Assembly: GCF_035593345.1 (NCBI RefSeq)
Contig: NZ_CP141606.1
Span: 744,001-808,000, forward strand
Reading direction: 5' to 3'
From: Lelliottia sp. JS-SCA-14
GTDB lineage: Bacteria; Pseudomonadota; Gammaproteobacteria; Enterobacterales; Enterobacteriaceae
DNA length: 64,000 nt
The first letter of the stretch is position 1. Each line of letters opens with the position of its first letter. Below are positions 1 through 52,071 of the stretch, piece after piece. A program made the translations under genes and the position numbers. The notes beneath the pieces are model-generated. The model worked only from the letters and a program-made list of their open reading frames with translations, was not told where the DNA came from and made no database searches.

Positions 1-633
1 GCCCGTGAAACGCCGCAGGCCTTTTTCGACGGCCTGAAGCGGCGCAACATTCCGGCGATTATGGTGGTGCGCCCGCTCAACGATCCGGATTTCGATTTTG
101 TCGGGACGGATAACTTCCTCGGCACGCAAATGGCGACCGAACATCTGCTGCGGATGGGCCATCGCCAGATTGCCTTTATCGGCGGCAGCCAGAATTCCGG
201 CTCGCGGGCGCAGCGTATCGGCGGCTTTACCAGTCAGCTGCTGGAGTACGGCGTTGCGCCGAATCCTGAGTGGATCATCACCTCGCAGGCCAGCCAGAGT
301 GATGGGGCACGCGTGGCGGAAAGCCTGCTGCGGGGCAATCCGCAGATCACGGCGGCCATTTGCTATCAGGATATTGTGGCGCTCGGCGTTATGCAGAGTT
401 TACGCAAACTGGGCCGCGAACCGGGGCGGGATTTCGCGCTGGTGGGCTTCGATGACATCACCGAAGCGGCGCTGGTTCAGCCCGCGCTGACCACGGTATC
501 GGTCGCGGCGAAAGAGATCGGGCGTAAAGCCGGGGAGCTGCTGTTCAGCCGGATTCAGGGCAATGACGAACCGGCAAAACGGATCATCCTGCCACCGGCG
601 CTGGTGGTGCGGGAATCATGCGGTTTTCGCTGA
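1..633 (+). CDS. LacI/GalR-family transcriptional regulator, 3' part only
   Basis: The reading frame is open from base 1, so the gene begins upstream of the window; about 210 C-terminal residues are present. They form the periplasmic-binding-protein-like effector domain of LacI/GalR regulators: a 'DFVGTDNFLGTQMATEHLL' type segment, 'GHRQIAFIGG', 'AAICYQDIVALGVMQSL', 'FALVGFDDI' and a terminal 'ALVVRESCG' are all family landmarks. The N-terminal helix-turn-helix is not in the window. E. coli has a nucleoside hydrolase gene beside dapB, so this neighbour is a lineage difference. I cannot name the effector or the operon controlled. The stop codon TGA is at 631-633. Confidence 0.85.
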   Translation, partial: ARETPQAFFDGLKRRNIPAIMVVRPLNDPDFDFVGTDNFLGTQMATEHLLRMGHRQIAFIGGSQNSGSRAQRIGGFTSQLLEYGVAPNPEWIITSQASQSDGARVAESLLRGNPQITAAICYQDIVALGVMQSLRKLGREPGRDFALVGFDDITEAALVQPALTTVSVAAKEIGRKAGELLFSRIQGNDEPAKRIILPPALVVRESCGFR

Positions 634-1588
<955 letters not shown>

Positions 1589-1642
1589 GTTTTATTACCC
1601 ATCGTGATGTGGTTATTGCAGTCTTAATTGATTGATTGCACA

Positions 1643-1670
1643 GGGCAATATTTTATTGCCCTTTTATTTT
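1643..1670 (+). terminator. Rho-independent terminator of dapB
   Basis: Stem GGGCAATA (1643-1650), loop TTT, stem TATTGCCC (1654-1661), followed by TTTTATTTT. It lies 55 bases after the dapB stop. Confidence 0.85.
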
Positions 1671-1807
1671 GCCATTCTGGCATATTTTCTTTAGCTAAAG
1701 GCGTTAAAAATATCATTTTCTCTCAATTTTGTGTTATCGCACTGTAAATTTTGACCATCTGGTCTGGTTTTTATTGCCCCTCACACTAAGATCCCACTAA
1801 ACTCAGC

Positions 1808-1823
1808 GTACAAACGTTTTCTA
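1808..1823 (+). promoter_or_regulatory. Probable PurR operator of carAB
   Basis: GTACAAACGTTTTCTA keeps the central CAAACGTTTTCT of the PurR consensus. It sits far upstream of carA, as the known E. coli carAB pur site does. Confidence 0.5.
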
Positions 1824-1993
1824 ACGTGATTTTGTTGATCTTTTTATGGCTTAAACTCCGTTAATCGCCAAAGGCGCGTAAAATAATAAACAAAAAAGCC
1901 ATTTTGAGTTGACTTTACCCCTCCAAATCCCCAGAATGCCGCCGTTTGCCGAAAATCCACTGGCAGCAAATTTGCATTGATTCATGACGTCGT

Positions 1994-2032
1994 TGTGAAT
2001 TAATATGCAGATAAAGTGAGTGAATATTCTCT
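1994..2032 (+). promoter_or_regulatory. Two ArgR boxes upstream of carA
   Basis: Two 18-bp boxes, 1994-2011 (TGTGAATTAATATGCAGA) and 2015-2032 (AGTGAGTGAATATTCTCT), are separated by 3 bp, the standard arrangement for binding an ArgR hexamer. The second box runs right up to the ribosome-binding site GGAG at 2033-2036. Confidence 0.8.
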
Positions 2033-2042
2033 GGAGGGTGTT

Positions 2043-3191
2043 TTGATTAAGTCAGCGCTATTGGTTCTGGAAGACGGAACCCAGTTTATCGGTCGGGCCA
2101 TAGGGGCAACAGGTTCGGCGGTTGGGGAAGTCGTTTTCAATACTTCAATGACCGGTTATCAAGAAATCCTCACTGATCCTTCCTATTCCCGCCAAATCGT
2201 CACCCTTACTTATCCTCATATTGGTAATGTCGGCACCAACGAAGCCGATGCCGAATCTTCCCAGGTCCACGCACAAGGTCTGATTATTCGCGACCTGCCG
2301 CTGATTGCCAGCAACTACCGCAACACCGAAGACCTCTCTTCTTACCTGAAGCGTCACAACATCGTGGCGATTGCCGATATCGATACCCGTAAGCTGACCC
2401 GTCTGCTGCGCGAGAAGGGCGCACAGAACGGCTGCATCATCGCGGGCGATAACCTGGATGCGGCCCTGGCGCAGGAAAAAGCGAAAGCCTTCCCTGGCCT
2501 GAACGGGATGGATCTGGCGAAAGAAGTGACCACCGCGGAAGCTTATAGCTGGACGCAGGGGAGCTGGACGCTGGCGGGCGAACTGCCGGAAGCGAAGAAA
2601 GAAGAAGAGCTGCCGTTCCACGTGGTCGCCTACGACTACGGTGCGAAGCGCAACATTCTGCGCATGCTGGTGGACCGCGGCTGCCGCCTGACGGTAGTTC
2701 CGGCGAAAACGCCTGCGGACGAAGTACTGAAGATGAACCCGGACGGGATCTTCCTCTCCAACGGCCCTGGTGACCCGGCGCCGTGCGAGTACGCGATTGA
2801 AGCGATTAAAAGCTTCCTCGAAACCGATATTCCGGTATTTGGCATCTGCCTCGGCCATCAGCTGCTGGCGCTGGCGAGCGGTGCGAAGACCGTCAAGATG
2901 AAGTTCGGCCACCACGGTGGTAACCACCCGGTGAAAGATATCGACAACAACACGGTGATGATTACCGCGCAGAACCACGGTTTTGCGGTGGACGAGGCAT
3001 CAATGCCTGCCAACCTGCGCGTTACCCACAAGTCGCTGTTCGACCATACCCTGCAGGGTATCCATCGCACCGACAAACCGGCGTTCAGCTTCCAGGGTCA
3101 CCCGGAAGCCAGCCCAGGCCCGCACGATGCCGCGCCGCTGTTCGATCACTTCATCGAACTTATCGAGCAATACCGTCAGACCGCTAAATAA
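2043..3191 (+). CDS. carA: Carbamoyl-phosphate synthase small (glutamine amidotransferase) subunit
   Basis: Hydrolyses glutamine and channels ammonia to CarB for carbamoyl phosphate, the shared precursor of arginine and pyrimidines. The start is placed at TTG 2043, giving [12 protein letters not shown], 382 residues, as in E. coli, with GGAGG 6-8 bases upstream. The upstream in-frame GTG (2016) would lie inside the ArgR box and lacks a ribosome-binding site. The C-terminal half is a class I amidotransferase: [12 protein letters not shown] carries the nucleophile Cys near residue 269, and [10 protein letters not shown] carries the His/Glu pair near 353-355. The 18-base gap to carB indicates an operon. 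Confidence 0.97.
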
Positions 3192-3209
3192 TCAGGAGCC
3201 GAGAAAAAA

Positions 3210-6434
<3,225 letters not shown>

Positions 6435-6450
6435 GCCGCACCGCGTGTAT

Positions 6451-6533
6451 CCGGCGGGTGGCGCTGCGCTTACCCGCCCTACAAAAACCACATTTCCACC
6501 TGTAGGCCGGGTAAGGCGCAGCCGCCACCCGGC
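6451..6533. repeat. REP pair (BIME) downstream of carB
   Basis: Two REP units in opposite orientation, 6451-6482 (CCGGCGGGTGGCGCTGCGC... ) and 6502-6533 (GTAGGCCGGGTAAGGCGCAG...), are separated by a short spacer, the usual BIME layout. The transcript could fold into a long stem that protects the carAB 3' end. Confidence 0.9.
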
Positions 6534-6647
6534 AACAAGCCTCTCCGTACTTCTTCAGAGTGTTCTGGTTTTCCATCTCCCGTCAGTCAGTTAGCCTAAA
6601 ATGGTTAGGTCGATAATTAAATTCAACTGAAAAGCAGGGAGAACACC

Positions 6648-6881
6648 ATGCGAAATAAACTTCTGGCTACCTCAATTTTTGCTGCAGCAGCCCTCTTTAC
6701 CGTTGCCGGTTGTTCATCCAACCAGGCGGTGAAAACTACCGACGGCAGAACCATCGTCACCGACGGTAAACCGCAGGTCGATGACGATACCGGTCTGGTC
6801 TCTTATAAAAACGCGGAAACCGGTAAAACCGAGCAAATTAACCGCGACCAGGTGAAGAACATGAGTGAATTAGATAACTGA
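6648..6881 (+). CDS. Small YgdI/YgdR-family (DUF903) lipoprotein
   Basis: A 77-residue predicted lipoprotein. The N-terminus MRNKLLATSIFAAAALFTVAGCSS has a charged start, a hydrophobic core and a lipobox VAG-C with Cys22 as lipidation site. The mature part (VKTTDGRTIVTDGKPQVDDDTGLVSYKNAETGKTEQINRDQVKNMSEL) resembles the small SH3-like YgdI/YgdR domain. The 'TDGR...TDGKPQVDDDTG...Y' pattern is typical of that family. Position 2 of the mature protein is Ser, so outer-membrane sorting is expected. The ATG at 6648 follows GGGAGAACACC. The molecular role of the family is unknown. It is monocistronic, with a hairpin just downstream. Confidence 0.85.
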   Translation: MRNKLLATSIFAAAALFTVAGCSSNQAVKTTDGRTIVTDGKPQVDDDTGLVSYKNAETGKTEQINRDQVKNMSELDN

Positions 6882-6901
6882 TTCTCATTCATTTTCTTTA
6901 T

Positions 6902-6931
6902 GACAGCGGCACCGTGCCGCTGTCTCTAATC
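6902..6931 (+). terminator. Hairpin terminator after the lipoprotein gene
   Basis: A perfect 10-bp stem GACAGCGGCA (6902-6911) / TGCCGCTGTC (6915-6924) with loop CCG, followed by the T-poor tail TCTAATCCTT. The position is right, but the U-tract is weak. Confidence 0.6.
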
Positions 6932-6932
6932 C

Positions 6933-6946
6933 TTGACGAATATCAA
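6933..6946 (+). promoter_or_regulatory. FNR-type box upstream of the DMSO-reductase-like operon
   Basis: TTGACgaatATCAA matches the FNR consensus TTGAT-N4-ATCAA at nine of ten defined positions. Its centre is about 61 bases before the ATG at 7001. A class II arrangement (centre near -41.5) would place the transcript start near 6981 with an AAAAT-type -10 around 6970. This suggests anaerobic induction, as for dmsABC in E. coli. Confidence 0.65.
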
Positions 6947-7000
6947 TCGTAACCCCAACGAGGTAGGTGAAAATCACGCTCTGAATACTGGAGAGTGATT

Positions 7001-9394
7001 ATGGAAGACCAAAATAAGACTGAAGATGAGCAAGGCTTTCGCCTTTCGCGGCGAAGTGTCCTGAAGTCAGGCTCTTTACTCCTGACCCTACCCTTTGTTT
7101 CGCTTAAATCCCATTCTGCTTAGGCTGCCGAAACCATCCCGGATCCTGCGCCTGCATCCGCTGAAAAAGTCGTACCCACCTGCAGCACCTTTGACTGTGG
7201 CGGGAAATGCGATATTCGGGCGCATGTCTCGGACGGTGTCGTCACCCGCATTACTACCCGTCCTGATAACGAGCTGGATGCCGACATGCCCATCATGCGC
7301 GCCTGCGTTCGTGGCCGCGGATACCGTAAATTTGTCTATCATCCCGACCGGCTTAAATATCCGATGAAGCGCGTGGGTAAACGTGGTGAAGGGAAGTTTG
7401 AGCGCATCTCCTGGGATGAAGCCACGACCCTGATTGCGGATAACCTCAAGCGCATCACGGCGAAATACGGCCCGGAATCGCGGTTTATGCATAACAACAC
7501 CGCCACCAGCGGCGGGGCGTTTTCTGGCGACGGCATGATGAAGCGTCTGCTGAATCTGACCGGGGGTTATCTCTCTTACTACCACTCGGTCAGCCTCGGC
7601 AATACCGTGGCGGCCACGCCTTACACCTATGGCATCGCGGCCAGCGGAAACTCGCTTGATACGCTCAAGGACACCCCGCTGGTGATCCTCTGGGGGCACA
7701 ACCCTACCGAGACGATTTTCGGCCATACCAACCACTATTTTCAGCAGATGAAGCAAAACGGCACCCGCTTTATCGTCGTTGATCCGCGCTATTCCGATAC
7801 CGTCTCTTCCCTGGCTGACCAGTGGATCCCGCTGCTGCCAACCACCGACAATGCCCTGATGGACGCGATGATGTACGTCATCATCAGCGAGAATCTGCAC
7901 GATAAAAACTTTATCGCTCGCCATACGCTGGGCTTTGATGAACAGTCGATGCCAGAAGGCGTTCCGGCCAATGAGTCGCTGATCTCCTATCTTATGGGCA
8001 CGAAAGACGGGGTCGTGAAAACGCCGGAATGGGCAGAAAAAATTACCCACGTTCCGGCGCAGACGATTCGCCAACTGGCGCGCGACTACGCCACCACCAA
8101 ACCGGCCGCTCTGATCCAGGGCTGGGGTCCGCAGCGACATAACTGCGGTGAAAGAACCGCGCGCGGATCGACACTGCTTGCCACACTCACCGGTAACGTC
8201 GGCGTGCCGGGCGGCTGGGCCGCGGGTTACGGCGGATGCGCCAACCGCAAATTCACCACCGGGATCGAAACCCTGGATAACCCGGTGAAGGAGAGCATCT
8301 CCATCATGAACTGGGTTCAGGCCGGTGATGATGCGAGCCAGGTGAAACCCGAGGATGGACTCAAGGGCGCGGAAAAACTGAAAAGTAACATTCGCATCCT
8401 GTTCTCGCTGGCGGGGAACTATCTGGCGAACCAAAATCCGGATGTGAATCAGACGGTGAAAGTGCTCGAGGACGAATCGAAAATCGAGTTTATCGTCGTG
8501 AGCGATCTCTACATGAGCCCGAGCGCGAAGTATGCCGACCTGCTGCTGCCCGAAACCAGCTTTATGGAGCGCTGGAACATTGGCGAAACCTGGGGGACAG
8601 CAAACTATTTGATCCTCTCCGAAAAACTAATTGAGCCTGAATTTGAGCGCCGCAGCGATTATGCCTGGCAGCGTGAAGTGGCGGCGAAACTTGGCGTTGA
8701 AGCTGAATTCAGCCAGGGGCGCGATGAGAAAGGGTGGATCGAACACATCTGGGAGAACACGCGCCAGTCGATGCCGGACGAAAAACTCCCGACCTTTGCC
8801 GAGCTGCAAGTGACCCGCCGCCATCTTTTCAAAAGCGCGCCGTGGGTGGCCTTTGAAGAGAATATCCGCGATCCCGACAATCATCCTTTCCCGACGCCGT
8901 CCGGCAAAATCGAGATCTTTTCGAAGCGCCTCTACGACATGAACCATCCGGAAATCCCGGCGCTGTCCCACTATGTGCCCGCCCACGAAGGACCGGAAGA
9001 TCCGCTGGCGAAGCAGTATCCGTTACAGCTGATCACCTGGAAAGGCAAAAACCGCGCGAACTCCACTCAGTACGCCAACCCGTGGCTGCAGGAAGTGCAG
9101 ATGCAAAAACTGTGGATTAACCCGCTGGATGCTGAGCAACGCGGAGTCCAGCAAGGTGACAAGGTGCGGATTCATAACGATCGCGGCGTGAGCCTGGTCG
9201 AGGCGAACGTTACGCCACGGATTATTCCGGGCGTGGTGGCGATGCAGGCGGGGGCCTGGTGGCAGCCCGATGCGCAAGGTGTCGACCACGGCGGATGCGC
9301 CAACGTACTCAGCTCAACGCGGATCACCGCGCTGGCGAAAGGGAATTCACATCAAACCATGCTGGTGGAGGTAGCGAAGCATGAGTCAGTTTAA
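7001..9394 (+). pseudogene. Tat-exported DMSO-reductase-family molybdopterin oxidoreductase, interrupted by an amber codon
   Basis: The frame from ATG 7001 (GGAGAGTGATT upstream) to TAA 9392-9394 would encode a 797-codon DmsA-like catalytic subunit but contains TAG at 7121-7123 (codon 41). Before it lies a Tat signal (SRRSVLKSG, residues 16-24, then a hydrophobic stretch to about residue 35). After it come the [4Fe-4S] cysteines C61, C66, C70 and C102, then PDRLKYPMKRVGKRGEG, molybdopterin-binding regions and the C-terminal dinucleotide-binding domain, all intact. A CAG-to-TAG change would explain it, because Gln41 would restore an A-Q-A cleavage motif. Translation restarting at ATG 7286 would lose the Tat signal and three cluster cysteines. 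Either the gene is inactive or the base is an error or suppressed. The gene overlaps the next by 14 bases. Confidence 0.8.
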
Positions 9395-10010
9395 GGAATA
9401 CGCACCCGTAAGCGATAAACAGCTGGGGTTCTTTATCGATTCCTCCCGCTGTTCAGGCTGCAAAGCCTGCCAGGTGGCGTGCAAAGATAAAAATAATCTC
9501 GACGTCGGGCGCCGTTTTCGTCGGGTTTACGAAGTGACGGGCGGCGGGTTCATGCCGACCGGTCAGGGCGGCGTGCAGAACAACGTCTTCGCCTACACCC
9601 TCTCCATCTCCTGCAATCATTGCGCCGATCCTATCTGTACGAAGAACTGCCCCACCACCGCCATGCACAAAAGGCCTGGCGACGGCATAGTGCGCGTCAA
9701 CACTGACAAGTGCGTGGGCTGCGGCTATTGCGCCTGGTCTTGCCCTTACGGCGCGCCGCAGCTCAACGAGCAAACCGGGCAAATGTCGAAGTGCGATTTT
9801 TGCGTGGATCTCCAGGCGCAGGGCGAACAGCCGATCTGCGTCGCAACCTGTCCGCTGGGAGCCATCCAGTTTGGCCCGATCGACGAGTTACGCAAAAAGT
9901 TCGGTCATCTTTGCGATGTGAACGGATTGCCCGATTCGGCGATCACCCAGCCTAGCCTGGTGATCAAAGCGCATCAGGGTGCGGAGAAAAAGGAGAAACC
10001 TCATGCATGA
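9381..10010 (+). CDS. DmsB-type four-cluster iron-sulfur electron-transfer subunit
   Basis: A 209-residue ferredoxin-like subunit expected to pass electrons from the membrane anchor to the molybdoenzyme. Four cysteine groups are present: C24xxC27xxC30xxxC34, then CNHCADPICTKNCP, CVGCGYCAWSCP and CDFCVDLQAQGEQPICVATCP, the classical four [4Fe-4S] pattern of DmsB/YnfG. It starts 14 bases before the end of the catalytic gene and overlaps the anchor gene by 8 bases, so the three are translationally coupled. No export signal is seen. In this family the subunit is carried across by the Tat signal of its partner, which here is cut off by the amber codon. Confidence 0.93.
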   Translation: MSQFKEYAPVSDKQLGFFIDSSRCSGCKACQVACKDKNNLDVGRRFRRVYEVTGGGFMPTGQGGVQNNVFAYTLSISCNHCADPICTKNCPTTAMHKRPGDGIVRVNTDKCVGCGYCAWSCPYGAPQLNEQTGQMSKCDFCVDLQAQGEQPICVATCPLGAIQFGPIDELRKKFGHLCDVNGLPDSAITQPSLVIKAHQGAEKKEKPHA

Positions 10011-10827
10011 GTGGCCGCTGTTAATCTTTACCCTGCTACTGCAGGGGGCCGTCGGGCTGACGCTCTTTCTGACCCTGAACCTGTGGTCGGGCAGCACGCC
10101 GCATTATTCCACTCGGCTGTCGACGGAACGGCCGCAACTGCCGATCTTTATCGTCTGCGTCATGGCCGGACTGGGCCTGCTGGCATCGGTATTCCATCTG
10201 GGATATCCGCTTAACGCCTTCAACGCCCTGCGCCATTTCAACAGTTCGTGGCTGAGTCGTGAGATCGTGTTTGCCAGCCTGTTCCTGGCCTTCGCCGGGT
10301 TGGGCTTTTTGGCCTCGCTAATGAAAGGATCGCTCTGGAAGGGGTTGATGCCGCTGGCGCTGCTGCTGGGGCTGATCGACGTGTATTGCATGAGCCAGAT
10401 CTACATGCATACCTCGGTGATCACCTGGATGCATGCCAATACCCTGGTGATGTTTTATGGGTCGGTAGCCATTGTCGGCGCGGTGGTGGCCAGTGTGCTG
10501 CTGCCCCTGCGTAATAGCTCACTTGCCCGCGGGATGATGGCGCTGGTAGTGGTAGCCGTTCTGGTTCGGCTGCTGACGCAAATTCCTTATATGTCGTGGC
10601 TGTCCGGGGCCGGACTGAGTGACGCGCCGACGTTCCCGCATCAGCCGCTGGAGGCGTTCAAAACCACCGCTGAGCTGCGTTTGTGGGGCTGGTCGCTCTC
10701 CGTCGTCGGTGCGCTGGCCTTTGCCTGCGGCGCACTTCGCTCTCGCCAGGTGTGGCTGTACGCCGGTGGCGCATTATTGCTGATAGCCGAAGTTCTGCTG
10801 CGCTTTGCGTTCTTTAGCATTCACTGA
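10003..10827 (+). CDS. DmsC-type membrane anchor subunit
   Basis: A 274-residue integral membrane protein with about eight hydrophobic segments, beginning MHEWPLLIFTLLLQGAVGLTLFL as DmsC/YnfH proteins do. By family it oxidises menaquinol and anchors the DmsAB dimer on the periplasmic face. The start is set at ATG 10003, with AAGGAGAAACC just upstream and an N-terminus fitting the family. An in-frame ATG at 9979 would add eight charged residues inside the previous gene. It overlaps the upstream gene by 8 bases and the downstream gene by 1 base (TGATG). Confidence 0.9.
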   Translation: MHEWPLLIFTLLLQGAVGLTLFLTLNLWSGSTPHYSTRLSTERPQLPIFIVCVMAGLGLLASVFHLGYPLNAFNALRHFNSSWLSREIVFASLFLAFAGLGFLASLMKGSLWKGLMPLALLLGLIDVYCMSQIYMHTSVITWMHANTLVMFYGSVAIVGAVVASVLLPLRNSSLARGMMALVVVAVLVRLLTQIPYMSWLSGAGLSDAPTFPHQPLEAFKTTAELRLWGWSLSVVGALAFACGALRSRQVWLYAGGALLLIAEVLLRFAFFSIH

Positions 10828-11678
10828 TGCTGCGTTTCGCTTTAGCTGACTCCCCACCGCCACCCGCGGTGGGCGAGTCATGTTTACGCCGCTCGCTTCG
10901 ACGTGCAACCTGCCGCGCCTGCGTGGACAATTGCCCGGCAGATGCGCTGACGGTAACAGGCGAGGGCGCAGCGCTTAACGACGAACTGTGCCTGCGCTGT
11001 GGCCGTTGTCTGTTTGTCTGCCCCGTGGGAGCCATTGCGCACCTTGAACCTCCCCGAAGGCACACTCTCGCTCAACGGCTGATCGCGCCCTTCACGGCCA
11101 TTGCGCCTGACATCAACGAACTCCTGCTGTGGCATGTTCAACATCATATTCGCGGTGTGGATATCGATCTGGATGAACATCCTCACTGGGGCCTCGCTAT
11201 CGCGGCGCTCAATCTTAAGCTGCGCGAACTGGACGAACCCGCGTGGCAGATTTTTCCGCCGCAGCTAGCATCTCTCGATCGCGGACGCCGCCGTTTGTCA
11301 GGCGTGGAGAAAGGCGTTTCTGTGGAGGTGGAGCCGCTCTCGAAGGCTTTTCCGCAGTATCAACAGTTTACGCTGCAGCTCGATCCTGAACGGTGTGTCG
11401 CCTGCGCGGCGTGCAGCCGGGTCTGTTCCCCGAAGGCGTTAGTGCTAGAGGCGGGAGCCTTTGCCCTCGACGCCCGGCAGTGCACCGGCTGCAAAGCGTG
11501 CGAGGCGGTCTGTCCGGTTGATGCCATACGCATTGTGCCTGAAACGCGCAAAGCCGGGGCGATCGTTCACCCCTTGTTTGAGACCTCCTGCCTGGCGTGC
11601 TCCCGCCCGTTTTATGCCTGGCATCCGCAGACCTCCCTGTGTCCGATTTGCCGCCAGCATCATCACGGGATGCGGTGA
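10827..11678 (+). CDS. Ferredoxin-like protein with two pairs of 4Fe-4S motifs and a C-terminal zinc-ribbon-like segment
   Basis: A 283-residue soluble protein. Near the N-terminus are C29xxC32xxxC36P (with C19 as possible fourth ligand) and C55xxC58xxC61xxxC65P. A cysteine-free region of about 125 residues follows. Around residues 192-235 are CVACAACSRVCSPKAL and CTGCKACEAVCPVDAI. The C-terminus carries CLAC...CPIC, a rubredoxin/zinc-ribbon-like double CxxC, then a His-rich tail. It is coupled to the anchor gene by a 1-base overlap, so it belongs to the oxidoreductase operon. It might be a cytoplasmic electron carrier or a maturation factor, since the operon has no TorD/DmsD-type chaperone. 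I do not recognise an experimentally studied homologue. Confidence 0.85.
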   Translation: MLRFALADSPPPPAVGESCLRRSLRRATCRACVDNCPADALTVTGEGAALNDELCLRCGRCLFVCPVGAIAHLEPPRRHTLAQRLIAPFTAIAPDINELLLWHVQHHIRGVDIDLDEHPHWGLAIAALNLKLRELDEPAWQIFPPQLASLDRGRRRLSGVEKGVSVEVEPLSKAFPQYQQFTLQLDPERCVACAACSRVCSPKALVLEAGAFALDARQCTGCKACEAVCPVDAIRIVPETRKAGAIVHPLFETSCLACSRPFYAWHPQTSLCPICRQHHHGMR

Positions 11679-11774
11679 CAACTCCGATACATTTGCTGTG
11701 CTTATGTATCTCGTTTTTGTTTTACCGCCAATGGGATATGCTTGATCAGATGTTCCTTCCGTAAAGAGCTCCGA

Positions 11775-12305
11775 ATGATTCTGATAATTTATGCGCATCC
11801 TTATCCGCAACACTCGCATGCGAATAAGCGAATGCTCGATCAAGTCAGGGAAATTGACGGCGTAGAAATACGCTCCCTCTATCAACTCTATCCCGATTTC
11901 AACATCGATATTGCCGCCGAACAGGAGGCGATTGCCCGCGCGGATCTGATCGTCTGGCAGCACCCGATGCAGTGGTACAGCACGCCGCCGCTGCTCAAAC
12001 TGTGGATCGACAAAGTCTTCTCCCACGGCTGGGCCTACGGGCATAACGGTCACGCGCTGAAAGGCAAAAGCCTGATGTGGGCCGTTACCACTGGCGGCGG
12101 GGAAAGTCATTTCGATATTGGCGAACATCCGGGATTTGAGGTGCTGTCTCAGCCATTGCAGGCGACGGCGGTGTACTGCGGATTGCAGTGGCTGCCGCCT
12201 TTCGCCATGCACTGCACCTTTGTCTGCGATGACGAAACCTTGCAGGCGCAGGCCCGTCACTACAAACAACGTCTACTCGACTGGCAGGAGCACCACCATG
12301 GATAG
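11775..12305 (+). CDS. kefF: KefF, quinone oxidoreductase and ancillary protein of the KefC potassium channel
   Basis: A flavodoxin-fold NAD(P)H:quinone reductase (176 residues) that binds KefC and is needed for full activity of the glutathione-gated K+ efflux system against electrophiles. Seen: [50 protein letters not shown] and [12 protein letters not shown], all characteristic. The start ATG 11775 gives the E. coli length and N-terminus; an in-frame ATG 33 bases upstream (11742) would add unrelated residues. The upstream AAAGAGCTCCG is the ribosome-binding region. It overlaps kefC by 8 bases. Confidence 0.95.
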
Positions 12306-14163
12306 CCATACGCTGATACAGGCATTGATCTACCTGGGTGCGGCCGCGCTGATCGTTCCGGTGGCGGTGCGTCTGGGCCTGGGCTCGGTGCTCGGGTATT
12401 TGATCGCCGGTTGCGCCATCGGCCCGTGGGGGCTTGGGCTGGTCACGGACGCCGAGTCTATTCTGCATTTCGCCGAAATCGGCGTGGTGCTGATGCTGTT
12501 TGTCATTGGTCTGGAGCTCGACCCGCAGCGTCTGTGGAAACTACGCGCCTCGGTGTTTGGCGGCGGGGCGTTGCAGATGATCGCCTGCGGCGCGCTGCTG
12601 GGCGGATTCTGTATTCTGCTCGGGATGGACTGGAAGGTCGCCGAGCTTATCGGCATGACTCTTGCGCTCTCCTCGACGGCGATTGCCATGCAGGCGATGA
12701 ATGAGCGCAACCTGACGGTGTCCCAGATGGGGCGCAGCACGTTCTCCGTTTTGCTGTTCCAGGATATCGCCGCGATTCCGCTGGTGGCGATGATCCCGCT
12801 GCTGGCGGCGAGCGGTTCGTCCACTACGCTGGGGGCCTTCGCCCTGTCGGCACTGAAAGTGGCGGGGGCGCTGGCGCTGGTGATCCTGTTGGGCCGGTAT
12901 GTGACGCGCCCGCTGCTGCGTTTTGTCGCGCGCTCCGGGCTGCGGGAAGTGTTCAGCGCCGTGGCCCTGTTCCTGGTCTTCGGTTTTGGTCTGCTCCTCG
13001 AAGAGGCCGGTCTGTCGATGGCGATGGGGGCATTCCTCGCGGGCGTTCTGCTCGCCAGCTCCGAATACCGTCATGCACTGGAAAGCGATATCGAACCCTT
13101 TAAGGGCCTGCTGCTGGGGCTGTTCTTTATCGGCGTCGGGATGTCCATCGACTTTGGCACGCTGGTGACGCACCCGCTGCGCATTCTGATCCTGCTGGTC
13201 GGTTTCCTGGTCATTAAAATGGGCATGCTGTGGCTGATCGCCCGCCCGCTGAATGTGCCGAATAAACAGCGCCGCTGGTTTGCGGTTTTGCTGGGGCAGG
13301 GGAGTGAATTTGCCTTCGTGGTGTTTGGTGCGGCGCAGATGGCGAACGTACTCGACGCCGAGTGGGCGAAGGCGCTGACCCTGGCGGTGGCGCTGTCGAT
13401 GGCGGCCACGCCGATTTTACTGGTGCTGCTTACGCGTCTGGAGCAATCCGGCAGCGGGCAGGAGCGCGAAGCGGATGAGATTGACGAAGAGCAGCCGCGG
13501 GTAATCATCGCCGGGTTTGGCCGCTTCGGGCAGATCACCGGCCGCTTGCTGCTCTCCAGCGGGGTGAAAATGGTCATTCTGGATCACGATCCTGACCACA
13601 TTGAAACTCTGCGTAAATTTGGCATGAAGGTCTTTTACGGCGATGCGACGCGCGTCGATCTGCTGGAATCCGCCGGGGCGGCGAAAGCCGAGGTGCTGAT
13701 TAACGCGATTGACGATCCGCAGGCCAGCCTCCAGCTGGCTGAGCTGGCGATGGAGCATTTCCCGAACCTGAAAATCATCTCCCGTGCGCGCGATGTGGAC
13801 CATTACATCAAGCTGCGTCAGGCCGGGGTGGAAGCGCCGGAGCGTGAAACCTTCGAAGGGGCGCTGAAATCCGGGCGTATGGCACTGGAAGGGTTAGGGC
13901 TGGGTGCCTATGAAGCGCGCGAGCGCGCCGATCTGTTCCGCCGATTTAACACCGGGATGGTCGAAGAGATGGTGGAGATGGCCGAAGAGGATGCGACGTC
14001 CCGCGCGGCGGTAGTGAAACGCACCAGCGCGATGCTGACGGAGATCATCAACGAGGATCGAAATCATCTGTCGTTGACTCAGCGTCACGGCTGGCAGGGA
14101 ACGGAAGAGGGCAAACATACCGGCGATCCGAAGGATGAACCGGAGAGTAAACCTCTGGCGTGA
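12298..14163 (+). CDS. kefC: KefC, glutathione-gated potassium/proton antiporter
   Basis: Inner-membrane CPA2-family exchanger of 621 residues. The N-terminal ~380 residues hold about a dozen hydrophobic segments ([40 protein letters not shown]...). They are followed by a cytoplasmic RCK/TrkA-N domain starting [22 protein letters not shown] near residue 400 with the Rossmann GxGxxG pattern. That domain binds glutathione adducts and KefF. The start ATG 12298 overlaps the kefF end. An upstream in-frame ATG (12118) lies deep in kefF and is not credible. It acidifies the cytoplasm on electrophile attack. Confidence 0.96.
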
Positions 14164-14207
14164 AGTGGAGTTGCCAGCAATATTGAAATATTTCCCGTTC
14201 TTTACTC

Positions 14208-14755
<548 letters not shown>

Positions 14756-14757
<2 letters not shown>

Positions 14758-14949
14758 GGCGAAGCCGCCATTCGGCATTCGTGCGGTGAGTTTGCCTGAT
14801 GGCGCTTCGCTTATCAGGCCTACGAAAGACCATCTAAGAATGTAGGCCGGATAAGGCGAAGCCGCCATCCGGCACTTGTGCGGTGAGTTTGCCTGATGGC
14901 GCTTCGCTTATCAGGCCTACGAAAGACCATCTAAGAACGTAGGCCGCCA
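14756..14949. repeat. Tandem duplication of a 97-bp REP/BIME unit between folA and apaH
   Basis: Two direct copies, 14756-14852 and 14853-14949, repeat with a period of exactly 97 bp. Each contains two inverted REP cores (AAGGCGAAGCCGCCAT and GATGGCGCTTCGCTTATC) and the linker ACGAAAGACCATCTAAGAA. The copies differ at only a few positions. Copy one begins inside the folA stop codon. A third, truncated core (TAGGCCGCCATCC) follows at 14940-14953. Confidence 0.9.
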
Positions 14950-14962
14950 TCCTGCAATGACA

Positions 14963-42460: not shown

Positions 42461-43861
42461 TTATTTCAAACCACGAATATCGGCAAAATGACCGGTGACA
42501 GCGGCAGCCGCTGCCATCGCCGGGCTCACCAGATGGGTGCGTCCGCCGCGGCCCTGACGGCCTTCAAAGTTACGGTTGCTGGTGGAGGCGCAGCGCTCGC
42601 CGGGGTTCAGGCGGTCGTTGTTCATCGCCAGACACATTGAGCAACCCGGTAAGCGCCACTCAAAACCGGCTTCGATAAAGATCTTATCCAGACCTTCGGC
42701 TTCCGCCTGCGCTTTCACCGGGCCGGAGCCTGGCACGACCAGCGCCTGCACGCCAGGAGCCACTTTGCGGCCTTTGGCAATTTCCGCCGCTGCGCGCAAA
42801 TCTTCGATACGGGAGTTGGTGCAGGAGCCGATAAACACTTTATCTATCGCCACGTCGGTCAGCGGCACGCCCGGTTTCAGGCCCATGTAGGCCAGCGCTT
42901 TTTCGGCGCTCGCGCGTTCAACCGGATCGGCAAACGAGGCCGGATCGGGGATGTTGTCGTTGACGGAAATCACCTGGCCTGGGTTGGTGCCCCAGGTGAC
43001 CTGCGGGGCGATCTCTTCGGCCTGCAGCGTCACAACGGTATCGAAGGTCGCGCCGTCGTCGGTTTGCAGGGTTTTCCAGTATTGCACCGCATCGTCATAA
43101 TCTTTGCCTTTCGGCGCGTGCAGACGACCTTTCACGTAGTTGAAGGTGGTTTCGTCTGGCGCGACCAGACCGGCTTTGGCCCCCATCTCGATCGCCATGT
43201 TGCACAGGGTCATGCGGCCTTCCATGCTCAACGCTCGGATCGCATCGCCGCAGAATTCCACGACGTGGCCGGTTCCGCCTGCGCTGCCGGTTTTACCGAT
43301 AATCGCCAGCACGATGTCTTTGGCGGTAATGCCTGGTGCCGCCTGGCCGTTAACTTCAATTTTCATGGTTTTCGCGCGGCCCTGTTTCAGGGTTTGCGTC
43401 GCCAGAACGTGCTCCACTTCGGAGGTGCCGATACCAAAGGCCAGCGCACCGAACGCCCCGTGGGTCGCGGTATGAGAGTCGCCGCAGACGATGGTCATGC
43501 CCGGCAGGGTGATGCCTTGCTCAGGACCCATCACGTGGACGATGCCCTGATACGGGTGGTTCAAATCGTACAGCTCCACGCCGAACGCGTTGCAGTTCTT
43601 AATCAGCTCCTGCATCTGGATACGCGCCATTTCGCCGGACGCGTTGATATCTTTGGTCTGCGTGGAAACGTTGTGATCCATGGTGGCGAAGGTTTTACCC
43701 GGCTGGCGAACCGGACGGTTGTGCGCGCGCAGGCCGTCAAATGCCTGCGGAGACGTCACTTCGTGCACCAGATGACGGTCGATGTACAGCAGCGGGGTTT
43801 CGTTTTGTGCCTCAAAAACCACGTGAGCATCAAACAATTTTTCGTATAACGTCTTCGCCAT
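42461..43861 (-). CDS. leuC: 3-isopropylmalate dehydratase large subunit
   Basis: Aconitase-family [4Fe-4S] enzyme of leucine synthesis. 466 residues. Cluster cysteines are in [17 protein letters not shown] (about residue 347) and [32 protein letters not shown] (about 407 and 410). [32 protein letters not shown] is the conserved N-terminal motif. It lies 2 bases after leuB and 10 before leuD. Confidence 0.98.
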
Positions 43862-43863
43862 GA

Positions 43864-46526
<2,663 letters not shown>

Positions 46527-46569
46527 GGGTTAGGTCCTTGTCTGTCCTGGGGCGCCTTGCTACGAGCAT

Positions 46570-46601
46570 AAAAAAACCCGCGCAGTGGCGCGGGTTTTTT
46601 T
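46570..46601 (-). terminator. leu operon attenuator
   Basis: On the minus strand CCCGCGC (46577-46583 complement) pairs with GCGCGGG (46588-46594) around a 4-base loop and is followed by seven T. It lies between leuL and leuA and fits the transcription attenuator of the operon. Confidence 0.92.
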
Positions 46602-46617
46602 GTTTACTGAAGACGAT

Positions 46618-46704
46618 TCAACGTTGAATTTCGCCCGCCAGCCTACCGCGCACAGTGGATGCGTTTAGTAGTAGTAGGCTGAAGTGGCGAGTGGTACGAA
46701 TCAT
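46618..46704 (-). CDS. leuL: LeuL, leu operon leader peptide
   Basis: A 28-residue leader, MIRTTRHFSLLLLNASTVRG followed by RLAGEIQR, too short for usual gene finders. Residues 10-13 are four consecutive leucines, all encoded by the rare CTA codon, so ribosome stalling under leucine or charged-tRNA shortage would disrupt the attenuator. The ATG at 46704 is preceded by the CTGGAG ribosome-binding site. The core LLLLNA--VRGR matches the E. coli leader. Confidence 0.93.
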   Translation of the reverse strand: MIRTTRHFSLLLLNASTVRGRLAGEIQR

Positions 46705-46738
46705 GAATCGGGCTCCAGATGAATGCGTTATGCTTTTA

Positions 46739-46767
46739 GTGGTACTGGATATGCGGATTCAAGTCAA
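46739..46767 (-). promoter_or_regulatory. leuLABCD promoter
   Basis: On the minus strand -35 TTGACT (46762-46767) and -10 TACCAC (46739-46744) are 17 bp apart. The transcript would start about 25 bases before the leuL ATG. Confidence 0.6.
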
Positions 46768-47318
46768 CCCCCGAAGTGAAAAACACCCTCAAACCGTCAT
46801 GACAATCGGATTTCTGCTTTAGCGTATTGTGCTGGGTTTTGCTACAGAGCTTATTTAAATTGTCTACTTTTGGACTTTAAATAATGATTGAAAATAAATT
46901 TAATATAATTCGTTTCAATTAATCATGACCAAATGTGTTTGCGGTGCTACTGCTAAAGTCATTAAATTCATTGGGTTGTGATTTTTTCAGATACGCAGTG
47001 AGTGAATGAAAGTCCACCAATGATAATGGATTGTTAACCAACAGACGTTGGTCATGTTGAATAGTTTAATAAAACTTAAATATTTGTTTACCGGAAGGCT
47101 TATTGTTTATTCATTGGATTTATGGTTTCATTCAAATCCTAATGTTCTGGTTATTGCTTGGTTCCTTATCGCTTGAACTCGTGTATACCTGCACCTGTTA
47201 TTTGGCATAAGCATTTTATATATTCCGAATTTTAAACTTTTCTCTTTTTCTGGTTTTATCTGCATGATAAATAATATTTTTAAAAGTTATTTCTGCACTA
47301 AGGCAAAGGGAGTTTAGC
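46768..47318. other. AT-rich intergenic region between leuL and leuO
   Basis: About 550 bases without a credible gene. Base composition changes sharply to AT-rich (long runs such as AATAAATTTAATATAATTCG around 46892-46911), contrasting with the GC-rich neighbours. In E. coli the corresponding region is bound by H-NS, silenced, and relieved by LeuO itself in the promoter-relay model. I see no exact operator to name. Confidence 0.7.
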
Positions 47319-48284
47319 GTGACAGTGGAGTTAGATATGTTAGAAAAAAGAAATGATCAGCCTCACACGACAAGTGAAGGGACCAGGCCGCAACTGCGTA
47401 CGGTAGATCTTAACTTATTAACCGTTTTTGATGCTGTTATGCAGGAACAGAATATTACCCGAGCCGCGCAGTCTTTAGGGATGTCTCAGCCTGCCGTCAG
47501 TAATGCCGTTGCCAGACTTAAACTGATGTTTAACGATGAACTCTTCGTCCGCTATGGCCGCGGGATCCAGCCTACCGCCAGAGCCTATCAGCTTTTTGCC
47601 TCCGTGCGTCAGGCGTTGCAGCTGGTCCAGAATGAGTTGCCAGGGTCCGGATTCGAACCTCTAAGCAGTGAACGTGTTTTCCACCTTTGCGTGTGCAGTC
47701 CGCTGGATAATTATCTGACTTCCGTTATCTATAATAAAGTCGAGGCCATCGCGCCTAATATTCATCTGATATTTAAGTCATCCTTAAATCAAAACACTGA
47801 GCATCAGCTTCGTTATCAGGAAACAGAATTTGTTCTTGGCTATGAAGAGTTTCGTCGCCCGGAATTTTCTTGCGTTCCCTTGTTCAAAGATGAAATGGTG
47901 TTAGTCGCCAGCAAAACCCATCCGCGCATTAATGGTCCGCTGCTGGAAAGCGATGTTTATAATGAACAGCATGCGGTGGTGGCGCTTGATCGCTACGCCT
48001 CATTTAGCCAGCCCTGGTACGATACCCCGGATAAACAAGCCAGCGTGGCATACCAGGGAATGGCCATGGTGAGCGTGTTGAATATCGTTTCGCAGACGCA
48101 CCTGGTGGCCATTGCCCCTCGTTGGCTGGCGGAAGAGTTCTCCTCCCAGCTCAATCTGCAAATATTATCGCTGCCGCTGAAACTAAATAGTCGCACCTGT
48201 TATCTTTCCTGGCACGAGGCTGCAGGGCGAGATAAAGGCCATCAGTGGATGGAAGAGTTATTGGTGAGCGTTTGCCGGCGTTAA
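47319..48284 (+). CDS. leuO: LeuO, LysR-type antisilencing regulator
   Basis: A global regulator counteracting H-NS. 321 residues from GTG 47319, which has GGGAG seven bases upstream; an ATG at 47337 is the alternative. N-terminal winged helix ([57 protein letters not shown], about residues 29-86) is nearly identical to E. coli. A LysR effector-binding domain follows, ending [19 protein letters not shown]. The extreme N-terminus (before PQLRTVDLN) is variable between species. Confidence 0.95.
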
Positions 48285-48670
48285 TCGCCATCAGGATAAA
48301 TCGGTGGAAATCATCCGGTTTATCCTGCCTTTATTTCCAGTGGTAGTATTTTATCCTGTCATGAATTTTTCCCTTCGTGTTTTACCGCGCAAAAATAGAT
48401 GAATTACTGATTCAGTCTCTTTTTAAGCGACGAATCATCATCGCCAAAGTGTATTCCAGTGGAATTCACCATATCTTGTCATAATCCCTGTGTATTCTGC
48501 TTTTAGTCCCTTTTTCACGCCTCCGTTTGCTGATTGCCTGCCTCATAGGGAGCGGTTAAGGTGAAGGTCACTCTGCAAAAATGTAAGACAGGGGCAACCC
48601 TGGTCAGCAAGACGGCGAGGAAATGAATTCCTGTGTTCGTCTATAACAACAAGAAGCCTGGAGGCAAACC
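48285..48670 (+). promoter_or_regulatory. ilvIH upstream region, with leuO 3' hairpin
   Basis: The 386-base gap begins with an inverted repeat AGGATAAA (48293-48300) / TTTATCCT (48319-48326) that may end the leuO transcript. The rest is the position of the Lrp-activated ilvIH promoter in E. coli and has AT-rich stretches compatible with Lrp binding. A small hairpin CAGGG-GCAA-CCCTG (48590-48603) lies in the probable leader. I assign no exact promoter. Confidence 0.5.
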
Positions 48671-50395
48671 ATGGAGATGTTGTCTGGCGCCGAAATGGTC
48701 GTCCGGTCGCTTATCGATCAGGGCGTCAAGCAAGTATTCGGCTATCCCGGAGGCGCGGTCCTCGATATTTACGATGCGTTACACACCGTGGGCGGTATTG
48801 ATCATGTACTGGTGCGCCATGAGCAAGCCGCCGTACATATGGCTGACGGTCTGGCGCGTGCCACCGGGGAAGTGGGCGTGGTGCTGGTCACCTCGGGCCC
48901 AGGAGCCACCAACGCCATTACCGGCATTGCGACTGCCTATATGGATTCCATCCCGCTGGTCATTTTATCCGGACAGGTTGCCACCTCGCTGATTGGCTAC
49001 GACGCCTTTCAGGAGTGCGACATGGTCGGGATCTCCCGCCCGGTGGTGAAGCACAGCTTCCTGGTCAAACAAACGGAAGACATTCCGGGCGTGCTGAAAA
49101 AAGCCTTCTGGCTGGCCGCCAGTGGCCGTCCTGGCCCGGTTGTTGTCGATTTACCCAAAGATATTCTCAATCCGGCCAACAAACTGCCGTACGTCTGGCC
49201 TGATTCCGTGAGCATGCGCTCTTATAATCCCACGACGCAGGGACATAAAGGTCAAATCAAACGCGCGCTGCAGACGCTGGTCGCCGCGAAAAAACCGGTG
49301 GTATATGTGGGTGGCGGTGCGGTGAACGCCCATTGCCATGCGCAGCTTCGTGAGCTAATCGAAAAGCTGAACCTACCTGTCGCATCGTCATTGATGGGGC
49401 TGGGCGCATTTCCGGCTACGCACCGTCAGGCGCTGGGTATGCTGGGGATGCATGGCACCTATGAAGCCAACATGACCATGCATAACTCCGATGTGATTTT
49501 TGCCGTCGGGGTGCGCTTTGACGATCGCACCACCAACAATCTGGCGAAGTACTGCCCGAATGCGACGGTGCTGCATATCGATATCGACCCGACCTCTATC
49601 TCTAAAACCGTTCCTGCCGATGTGCCGATCGTGGGCGATGCTTTGCAGGTTCTGGAACAAATGCTGGAGCTATTGGCGCATGACGCTCCTGCACAGCCGC
49701 TGGATGATATTCGCGACTGGTGGCAGCAGATTGAGCAGTGGCGTGGCCGTCAGTGTCTGAAATACGACACTCAGAGCGAACACATCAAGCCGCAGGCGGT
49801 GATCGAAACGATCTGGCGCTTGACCCAGGGCGATGCCTACGTCACCTCTGATGTCGGTCAGCACCAGATGTTTGCTGCCCTCTATTATCCGTTTGATAAA
49901 CCGCGTCGCTGGATAAACTCCGGCGGCCTCGGAACCATGGGCTTCGGTCTGCCCGCTGCCTTAGGCGTGAAGCTGGCGCTGCCAAATGAAACGGTGGTGT
50001 GCGTCACCGGTGATGGCAGTATCCAGATGAACATTCAGGAGCTCTCCACCGCACTGCAATACGATCTGCCGGTACTGGTGCTGAACCTTAACAACGGCTA
50101 TCTGGGGATGGTGAAGCAGTGGCAGGACATGATCTACTCCGGACGCCATTCGCAATCCTATATGAAATCGTTGCCGGACTTTGTACGGGTGGCGGAAGCC
50201 TACGGTCACGTCGGTATTCGCGTCAGCGATCCAAAAGAGCTGGAAGCGAAGCTCGGCGAAGCGCTGGAGCACGTCAGGAACAATCGCCTGGTCTTTGTGG
50301 ATGTCATCGTCGATGGAACGGAGCACGTCTATCCGATGCATATCCGCGGCGGCGGTATGGATGAAATGTGGTTAAGCAAAACGGAGAGAACCTGA
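48671..50395 (+). CDS. ilvI: Acetolactate synthase III large subunit
   Basis: Thiamine-diphosphate enzyme making acetolactate or acetohydroxybutyrate for valine, leucine and isoleucine. 574 residues, E. coli length. [37 protein letters not shown]; catalytic Glu in [13 protein letters not shown] (about residue 47); ThDP motif [35 protein letters not shown] near 440-475. The Gly of NNGYLG is Arg in the E. coli protein as I remember it, a position outside the metal ligands. The start follows GCCTGGAGGC. It overlaps ilvH by 1 base. Confidence 0.97.
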
Positions 50396-50886
50396 TGCGC
50401 AGGATATTATCTGTACTCCTGGAAAACGAATCTGGCGCGCTGTCGCGCGTCATTGGGCTCTTTGCGCAGCGCGGCTACAACATTGAAAGCCTGACCGTGG
50501 CACCGACCGACGATCCGACCCTGTCGCGGATGACTATCCAGACCGTCGGCGATGCGAAAGTGCTTGAGCAAATTGAAAAGCAGCTGCATAAATTAGTGGA
50601 TGTGCTGCGAGTGAGTGAATTAGGGCAGGGGGCGTACGTCGAGCGTGAAGTGATGCTGGTGAAAATTCAGGCCAGCGGATACGGACGCGAAGAGGTTAAG
50701 CGCAATACGGATATCTTCCGTGGGCAAATCATCGACGTGACACCCTCTATCTATACCGTTCAGCTTGCCGGAACCAGCGATAAGCTCGATGCCTTTCTGG
50801 CTTCCGTTCGCGATGTAGCAAAAATTGTCGAGGTCGCGCGCTCAGGCATCGTGGGCTTGTCCCGCGGTGATAAAATCATGCGCTAA
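50395..50886 (+). CDS. ilvH: Acetolactate synthase III regulatory subunit
   Basis: Small subunit conferring valine feedback inhibition and full activity on IlvI. 163 residues from ATG 50395 (overlap TGATG with ilvI). ACT domain at the N-terminus ([48 protein letters not shown]) and a C-terminal ACT-like regulatory domain. The N-terminal Gly/Asn positions linked to valine sensitivity look wild-type. Followed by a strong terminator. Confidence 0.97.
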
Positions 50887-50910
50887 CGACCAAAAAAGTT
50901 CGCCTCTTTC

Positions 50911-50941
50911 AGCCCGGTCTGCAAAGCCGGGCTTTTTTTTG
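50911..50941 (+). terminator. ilvIH terminator
   Basis: AGCCCGG (50911-50917) / CCGGGCT (50927-50933) with a 9-base loop, followed by eight T. Confidence 0.93.
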
Positions 50942-51066
50942 CCTAAACACCGCCTAAGGACAATAAAAGCGGTTGCCGCAAGAACTATTCTGCGTTTAGA
51001 TGTTAAAAGATATAACCATAAACCTGACAAGGCCATGGACTCTTTTATTTCGTTTAAGGGGCAATT

Positions 51067-52071
51067 GTGAAACTGGATGAAATCGCCCGGCTAGCCGGCG
51101 TGTCACGAACTACGGCGAGCTATGTGATTAACGGTAAAGCAAAGCAGTACCGTGTTAGCGACAAAACCGTTGAAAAAGTGATGGCGGTGGTTCGTGAGCA
51201 TAACTACCATCCGAACGCTGTCGCGGCCGGGTTACGTGCCGGGCGCACCCGCTCTATTGGTCTGGTGATCCCGGATCTGGAGAACACCAGCTACACACGC
51301 ATTGCGAACTATCTCGAACGTCAGGCGCGTCAGCGTGGCTATCAGCTGCTGATCGCCTGCTCGGAAGATCAGCCCGATAACGAGATGCGCTGCATTGAAC
51401 ACCTGCTGCAGCGCCAGGTCGACGCGATTATTGTGTCGACCTCTCTGCCGCCTGAGCATCCTTTCTACCAGCGCTGGGCGAATGGTTCGTTCCCGATTGT
51501 GGCGCTCGATCGTGCGCTCGACCGCGAACACTTCACAAGCGTGGTGGGTGCCGATCAAGACGATGCCGAGATGCTGGCCGCTGAGCTAAGAACTTTCCCG
51601 GCGGAAACCGTCCTCTATCTCGGCGCGCTGCCAGAGCTCTCCGTCAGCTTCCTGCGCGAGCAGGGGTTCCGTACCGCCTGGAAAGACGATCCGCGCGAGG
51701 TGCACTACCTCTACGCTAACAGTTACGAGCGCGAAGCCGCTGCTCAGCTATTTGAAAAGTGGCTTGAGACGCACCCGATGCCGCAGGCGTTGTTCACCAC
51801 CTCTTTCGCGCTGTTACAGGGCGTGATGGACGTGACGCTGCGCCGCGAAGGGAAACTCCCTTCCGAACTGGCGATTGCCACCTTTGGTGATAACGAACTG
51901 CTCGACTTTCTGCAATGCCCGGTGCTGGCCGTCGCTCAGCGTCATCGTGATGTGGCCGAACGGGTGCTGGAGATCGTGCTGGCGAGCCTCGATGAACCGC
52001 GTAAGCCAAAGCCGGGACTGACGCGTATCAAACGTAATCTCTACCGTCGCGGCGTGTTAAGCCGTCATTAA
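51067..52071 (+). CDS. cra: Cra (FruR), catabolite repressor/activator
   Basis: LacI-family global regulator of carbon flux; the effectors are fructose 1-phosphate and, by older reports, fructose 1,6-bisphosphate. 334 residues from GTG 51067. Helix-turn-helix and hinge: [68 protein letters not shown], nearly the E. coli sequence. The effector domain ends in [27 protein letters not shown] sequence precedes the GTG. Confidence 0.97.

What the first reader, a model, noticed from the sequence alone, without database searches (positions are those of the whole stretch)
7121..7123. In-frame amber codon at the Tat signal cleavage region of the molybdoenzyme gene
The frame from ATG 7001 reads through a Tat motif (SRRSVLK), stops at TAG codon 41, and continues with all further features of a DMSO-reductase-family catalytic subunit intact to 9394. 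The codon sits where A-x-A cleavage is expected, and a single C-to-T change from CAG (Gln) explains it. The downstream genes are all intact, so this is either a very recent inactivation, a sequence error, or a tolerated amber in a suppressing strain. Without readthrough the iron-sulfur and anchor subunits would be made with no catalytic partner.
Basis: partly seen in the sequence, partly recalled or inferred. Interest (0 to 1): 0.7.

Follow-up and report, generated by a model that had tools for sequence, protein, structure and literature searches.

The report
Stop-broken third DMSO reductase gene
One of several respiratory sulfoxide-reductase genes in this Lelliottia bacterium carries an early stop codon that a second strain of the same species shares, so it is most likely an ordinary, recently silenced spare gene and not a sequencing error or a new decoding trick.

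Summary
The TAG at 7121-7123 is real: codon 41 of an otherwise open dmsA-type frame, 7001-9394. It is not a lone sequencing error, because a separate assembly of the same species, Lelliottia sp. V86_10 (94 of 8,106 positions different around the gene), has the same TAG. It is not conserved more widely: of 67 related loci readable there, only V86_10 has a stop between Tat motif and cysteine cluster (list possibly capped). None of 83 tRNA genes found has an amber-reading anticodon. The next in-frame start, ATG 7286, lies beyond Tat signal and cysteine cluster. The TAG sits in a 1,351-base tract identical in both strains; the surrounding 14.7 kb differ by 1.4%. Neither strain is changed at 366 highly conserved positions. 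Best reading: recent nonsense inactivation of a redundant dmsA paralogue, shared within the species by recent descent or exchange; dmsA-like and ynfE-like genes without inner stops remain. Ordinary pseudogene; low interest.

The parts
7001..7120 (+). Truncated leader: 40 codons with twin-arginine (Tat) motif SRRSVLK and hydrophobic stretch
   Evidence: compared with relatives
7121..7123 (+). In-frame TAG, codon 41, between Tat motif and Cys cluster
   Evidence: same codon in L034/G059
7124..9394 (+). Rest of the dmsA-type frame, open; holds the CSTFDCGGKC cysteine cluster, molybdopterin oxidoreductase and dinucleotide-binding domains
7286..9394 (+). ORF from the first start codon after the stop (702 aa); lacks Tat signal and Cys cluster; no clear ribosome site
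   Evidence: context printed
6933..6946 (+). TTGACGAATATCAA, FNR-box-like site upstream of the operon (FNR consensus recalled, not from a call); same in V86_10 and L035, and with changes in the middle in L036 and L037
9381..10010 (+). dmsB-type iron-sulfur subunit, open frame, start overlaps the dmsA end
   Evidence: TIGR02951
10003..10827 (+). dmsC-type membrane anchor, open frame
   Evidence: listed from GTG 9979; ATG 10003 chosen by eye; PF04976
10827..11678 (+). ferredoxin-like protein with several 4Fe-4S motifs, last gene of the cluster, open frame
   Evidence: full or partial relatives beside 56 of 68 dmsA-type loci

Best explanation
This is a nonsense (amber) pseudogene allele of a redundant third DMSO-reductase-type catalytic gene, at the chromosomal spot between carB and kefF. 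Translation ends after 40 residues, inside the Tat leader (shown by the standard code). The next start codon in frame lies beyond the first cysteine cluster, so no exported, cluster-bearing enzyme is expected (inferred). The stop is recent: the rest of the gene shows little or no decay, and the stop sits in a DNA tract identical in two otherwise diverged strains. It is shared within the species by recent common descent or by recombination of that tract (inferred). Loss is probably tolerated because dmsA-like and ynfE-like genes elsewhere in the genome are open (presence shown; compensation inferred).
For: Same TAG in Lelliottia sp. V86_10 / G059, with 94 differences in 8,106 bases around it. 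Of 68 related loci, one could not be read through this stretch; of the other 67 only V86_10 has a stop between the Tat motif and the Cys cluster. 0 of 83 tRNA genes has a CTA anticodon. No start codon in frame from 7124 to 7285. The tract 6372-7722 (1,351 bases) has no difference, while 1-14740 has 213, a rate that would give 19-20. 0 of 366 columns with at least 97% one residue among 63 orthologues are changed in either strain. Paralogues: L103 scores above the DmsA cut-off and L104 is YnfE-like (just below that cut-off), both without inner stops.
Against: The frame after the stop shows strong constraint (dN/dS 0.067 between the two strains, 0.048 and 0.045 against L. nimipressuralis). Readthrough would also predict this, but that divergence may predate the stop, so it does not decide. 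Weak signs of relaxation are also present: at two of the six replaced codons (422, 442) the window's residue is seen in none of 63 orthologues, and at one (366) V86_10's is; dmsC has 3 replacement to 4 silent codon differences. Only two genomes of the species could be read, so an older, tolerated stop is not strictly excluded. No expression data.
Confidence: 0.88

Rival explanations
1. Tolerated amber: ordinary near-cognate misreading of UAG gives a little full-length enzyme, enough for selection to keep the frame; the stop acts as an expression dimmer.
For: The position seems to accept many residues: 13 different ones among the 66 loci with a sense codon at that offset. Frame after the stop undecayed. 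The abstract of PMC7918605 argues that many in-frame stops in bacterial genes keep dN/dS below 1 (abstract only).
Against: No amber-reading tRNA among 83. TAG seen in one species only. The identical tract implies little time for decay, so lack of decay is expected without readthrough too.
Confidence: 0.07
2. Sequencing or assembly error at one base.
For: None beyond the single-codon nature of the break; reads are not available here.
Against: Identical TAG in a second, separate assembly that differs at 94 other places within 8,106 bases.
Confidence: 0.01
3. Programmed readthrough or recoding conserved for function, for example a switch at the signal-peptide cleavage site.
For: Striking place of the stop, at the end of the signal peptide.
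Against: 66 of 67 readable loci, including sister species L. nimipressuralis, have no stop there. No conserved RNA structure was looked for after that result.
Confidence: 0.01
4. Translation restarts at ATG 7286 and gives a cytoplasmic 702-residue protein with some function.
For: An ATG in frame exists.
Against: Product lacks the Tat leader and the CSTFDCGGKC cluster; no clear ribosome site before ATG 7286.
Confidence: 0.03

Closest known systems
DmsA/YnfE-type catalytic subunit of bacterial DMSO/selenate reductase (TIGR02166), in a dmsABC-type operon
   Same: Domain content, operon order A-B-C, Tat leader, Cys cluster; the piece after the stop scores over the family cut-off.
   Different: Interrupted by TAG at codon 41 here and in V86_10. 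The piece after the stop is only 44% and 42% identical to the genome's own dmsA-like and ynfE-like proteins, so it is a separate paralogue.
Salmonella STM4305 dmsA of the pheU-tRNA genomic island (PMC1360685, passages read)
   Same: A Salmonella enterica protein cluster with 13,070 members is 85% identical to the part after the stop (P0041). That P0041 is STM4305 itself is supposed, not tested.
   Different: The Salmonella island is at pheU; here the operon sits between carB and kefF, an arrangement found in 3 of the 68 loci held (L034, L035, L037; flanks of 3 kb or less).
In-frame stop codons in bacterial genes with retained purifying selection (PMC7918605, abstract read)
   Same: Single inner stop in an otherwise constrained frame.
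   Different: Here the constraint cannot be shown to postdate the stop.

Membership tests
DmsA/YnfE-type reductase catalytic subunit (TIGR02166) | Profile score over the curated cut-off | tested here: met
   1040.8 bits against 777.7 for 7286-9391
DmsA/YnfE-type reductase catalytic subunit (TIGR02166) | Unbroken frame from the Tat leader to the catalytic domain | tested here: not met
   TAG at codon 41; the gene family is clear, but this allele is not an intact member
DmsA/YnfE-type reductase catalytic subunit (TIGR02166) | Operon with iron-sulfur (B) and anchor (C) subunits | tested here: met
   TIGR02951 and PF04976 directly downstream
Nonsense pseudogene | Premature stop in a frame that relatives keep open | tested here: met
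   66 of 67 readable loci have no stop in that stretch
Nonsense pseudogene | No full-length product | not testable with these tools
   needs protein or reporter data
Programmed or suppressed amber readthrough | Stop conserved in independent lineages | tested here: not met
   seen only in the one species; one capped list of loci
Programmed or suppressed amber readthrough | Amber-reading tRNA in the genome (needed for suppression, not for misreading) | tested here: not met
   0 of 83 tRNA genes; the first look scored 150 of 188 candidates, so a very odd tRNA could be missed

The most novel reading that the evidence does not exclude
The amber at the end of the signal peptide is kept in the species as a low-level readthrough dimmer of a respiratory enzyme, without a dedicated suppressor tRNA, and is spreading between strains by recombination.
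Probability: 0.04. Interest if true: 0.5.

Novelty: new member of a known kind. Interest (0 to 1): 0.13.

Why it matters
It shows that what looked like a possible sequencing error is a real shared allele, and it places it as a recent silencing of a redundant respiratory reductase. That is a small example of paralogue turnover among S-oxide reductases in enterobacteria. It has no wider consequence unless readthrough is shown.

Tried and rejected
Looked for a predicted 40-residue product in public protein sets: no candidate shares enough words. The 90%-identity clustering of the protein database can hide close alleles inside cluster P0001 (94% identical, 93 members), so (best 120 of 6198 hits listed) cannot say whether open alleles exist in other strains of the species. 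The tRNAs of V86_10 were not examined.

Limits and dropped numbers. The dmsC row was computed in a wrong frame and is not used; one search gives it rightly (3 replacement, 4 silent codon differences between the two strains). The per-500-base counts beyond about 14,745 are meaningless because of an indel. The run list covers only 14755-63902, and its simulation mixed that count with 64,000 bases, so the simulation is not used; the list does show a 7,485-base identical run at 43811-51297, so long identical tracts are not unique to the TAG region. Four of the 68 loci (L091, L098, L099, L101) have a shortened or unreadable frame and were left out of the conservation count; L101 alone could not be read.

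Literature: 'Lelliottia' with 'dimethyl sulfoxide reductase' gave 0 papers; some searches were the other searches. PMC9933680 was asked for and is not held. PMC12096835, PMC1360685 and PMC11438706 were seen in passages, PMC7918605 in its abstract and outline.

Full report
Observation. From ATG 7001 the frame reads a 40-residue leader with the twin-arginine motif SRRSVLK, a TAG at 7121-7123, and then an open frame to 9394. The piece 7286-9391 is a DMSO/selenate-type reductase catalytic subunit (TIGR02166, 1040.8 bits, cut-off 777.7). It is followed by B-type (TIGR02951) and C-type (PF04976) subunits and a ferredoxin-like protein, all open.

Is it an error? Almost certainly not. The window lies in a 5,005,402-base genome of 2 contigs. 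A same-species genome, G059, matches 501 of 501 bases around the stop. Its locus contains L034, named Lelliottia sp. V86_10. V86_10 is one of ten strains described as Lelliottia wanjuensis (PMC11438706, passages), so the window probably belongs to that species; this naming is inference. The two strains differ at 94 of 8,106 positions around the gene and yet share the TAG.

Is it conserved? Not beyond the species, in what was seen. Of 68 loci that encode relatives of the piece after the stop (possibly capped), 67 could be read between Tat motif and cysteine cluster; one of them, V86_10, has a stop there and 66 do not. Sister species L. nimipressuralis keeps the frame open. In the genus, 3 of 61 genomes have a match that covers the leader DNA: the window's, G059 and G036. 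At the codon 23 places after the twin arginines the residue varies: Ala 28, Ser 12 and eleven other residues in 66 loci, Gln in 2 (fixed offset, not a gapped alignment).

Can it be read through? None of the 83 tRNA genes found in the genome has a CTA anticodon (places, DNA, anticodons; 150 of 188 first-look candidates were scored). ARAGORN also called one antisense tRNA inside an arginine tRNA (L143), taken as spurious. Ordinary misreading of UAG cannot be judged from sequence. The next start codon in frame is ATG 7286, beyond the Tat leader and the cysteine cluster, with no clear ribosome site.

How old is it? Between the two strains there are 213 differences in the first 14,740 bases of the window, but none in the 1,351 bases between 6371 and 7723, where the TAG lies; another run of 1,740 identical bases is between 10631 and 12372, and one of 7,485 is at 43811-51297. 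By the mean rate 19-20 differences would be expected in the TAG tract. This looks like a mosaic left by recombination, and it means the two copies of the TAG share a recent ancestor. Beyond the tract the gene differs at 32 codons, 26 silent and 6 replacing (dN/dS 0.067; 0.048 and 0.045 against L. nimipressuralis). Because that divergence may predate the arrival of the TAG in one of the strains, it is not evidence of selection after the stop. Neither strain has a change at any of 366 columns that are at least 97% one residue among 63 orthologues; five intact orthologues treated alike had 0 or 1 such change each. Against full constraint: at codons 422 and 442 the window has residues, and at 366 V86_10 has one, seen in none of the 63 orthologues, and dmsC has 3 replacement to 4 silent codon differences. 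These are few and do not decide. The gene is essentially undecayed, as a recent stop predicts.

What does its loss do? The genome has a dmsA-like gene (L103, 1657.8 bits, over the 1600 cut-off for DmsA), a ynfE-like gene (L104, 1624.3 bits, just under the 1675 cut-off for YnfE) and a TorA/BisC-type gene (L105, over the bisC_fam cut-off, under both TorA cut-offs). These were scored on the matched segments only. Redundancy of such enzymes is described for E. coli and Salmonella (PMC12096835, passages). An FNR-box-like site upstream (6933-6946) is present in both strains (consensus recalled), so the operon may still be transcribed. The B and C genes may be expressed less because of polarity; this is inference.

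Verdict. A recent amber pseudogene allele of a redundant paralogue, shared by at least two strains of one species. Ordinary. Readthrough as a dimmer remains possible at a few per cent. Gene names carB, kefF, kefC, folA and apaH are recalled from the protein sequences and come from no family search.

Noticed in passing
10827-11678: A 283-residue protein with several 4Fe-4S motifs ends the operon; full or partial relatives (33-100% identity) lie beside 56 of 68 dmsA-type loci, yet none of the 25 NCBIfam matches shown (of 81) reaches its cut-off. Possibly an unnamed accessory ferredoxin of this reductase type.
   Followed up: partly
43811-51297: 7,485 bases without a difference between the window and V86_10, against about 1.2% over the 64 kb: a recently exchanged or strongly conserved tract.
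   Followed up: no
14757-14962: Between the folA-like and apaH-like genes the two strains differ by an indel of about 99 bases, in repeats that look like REP elements (the REP label is recalled).
   Followed up: no
L091, L098, L099, L101: Four of 68 relatives have a frame shortened or shifted elsewhere in the same gene: real breaks or assembly errors, not told apart.
   Followed up: no
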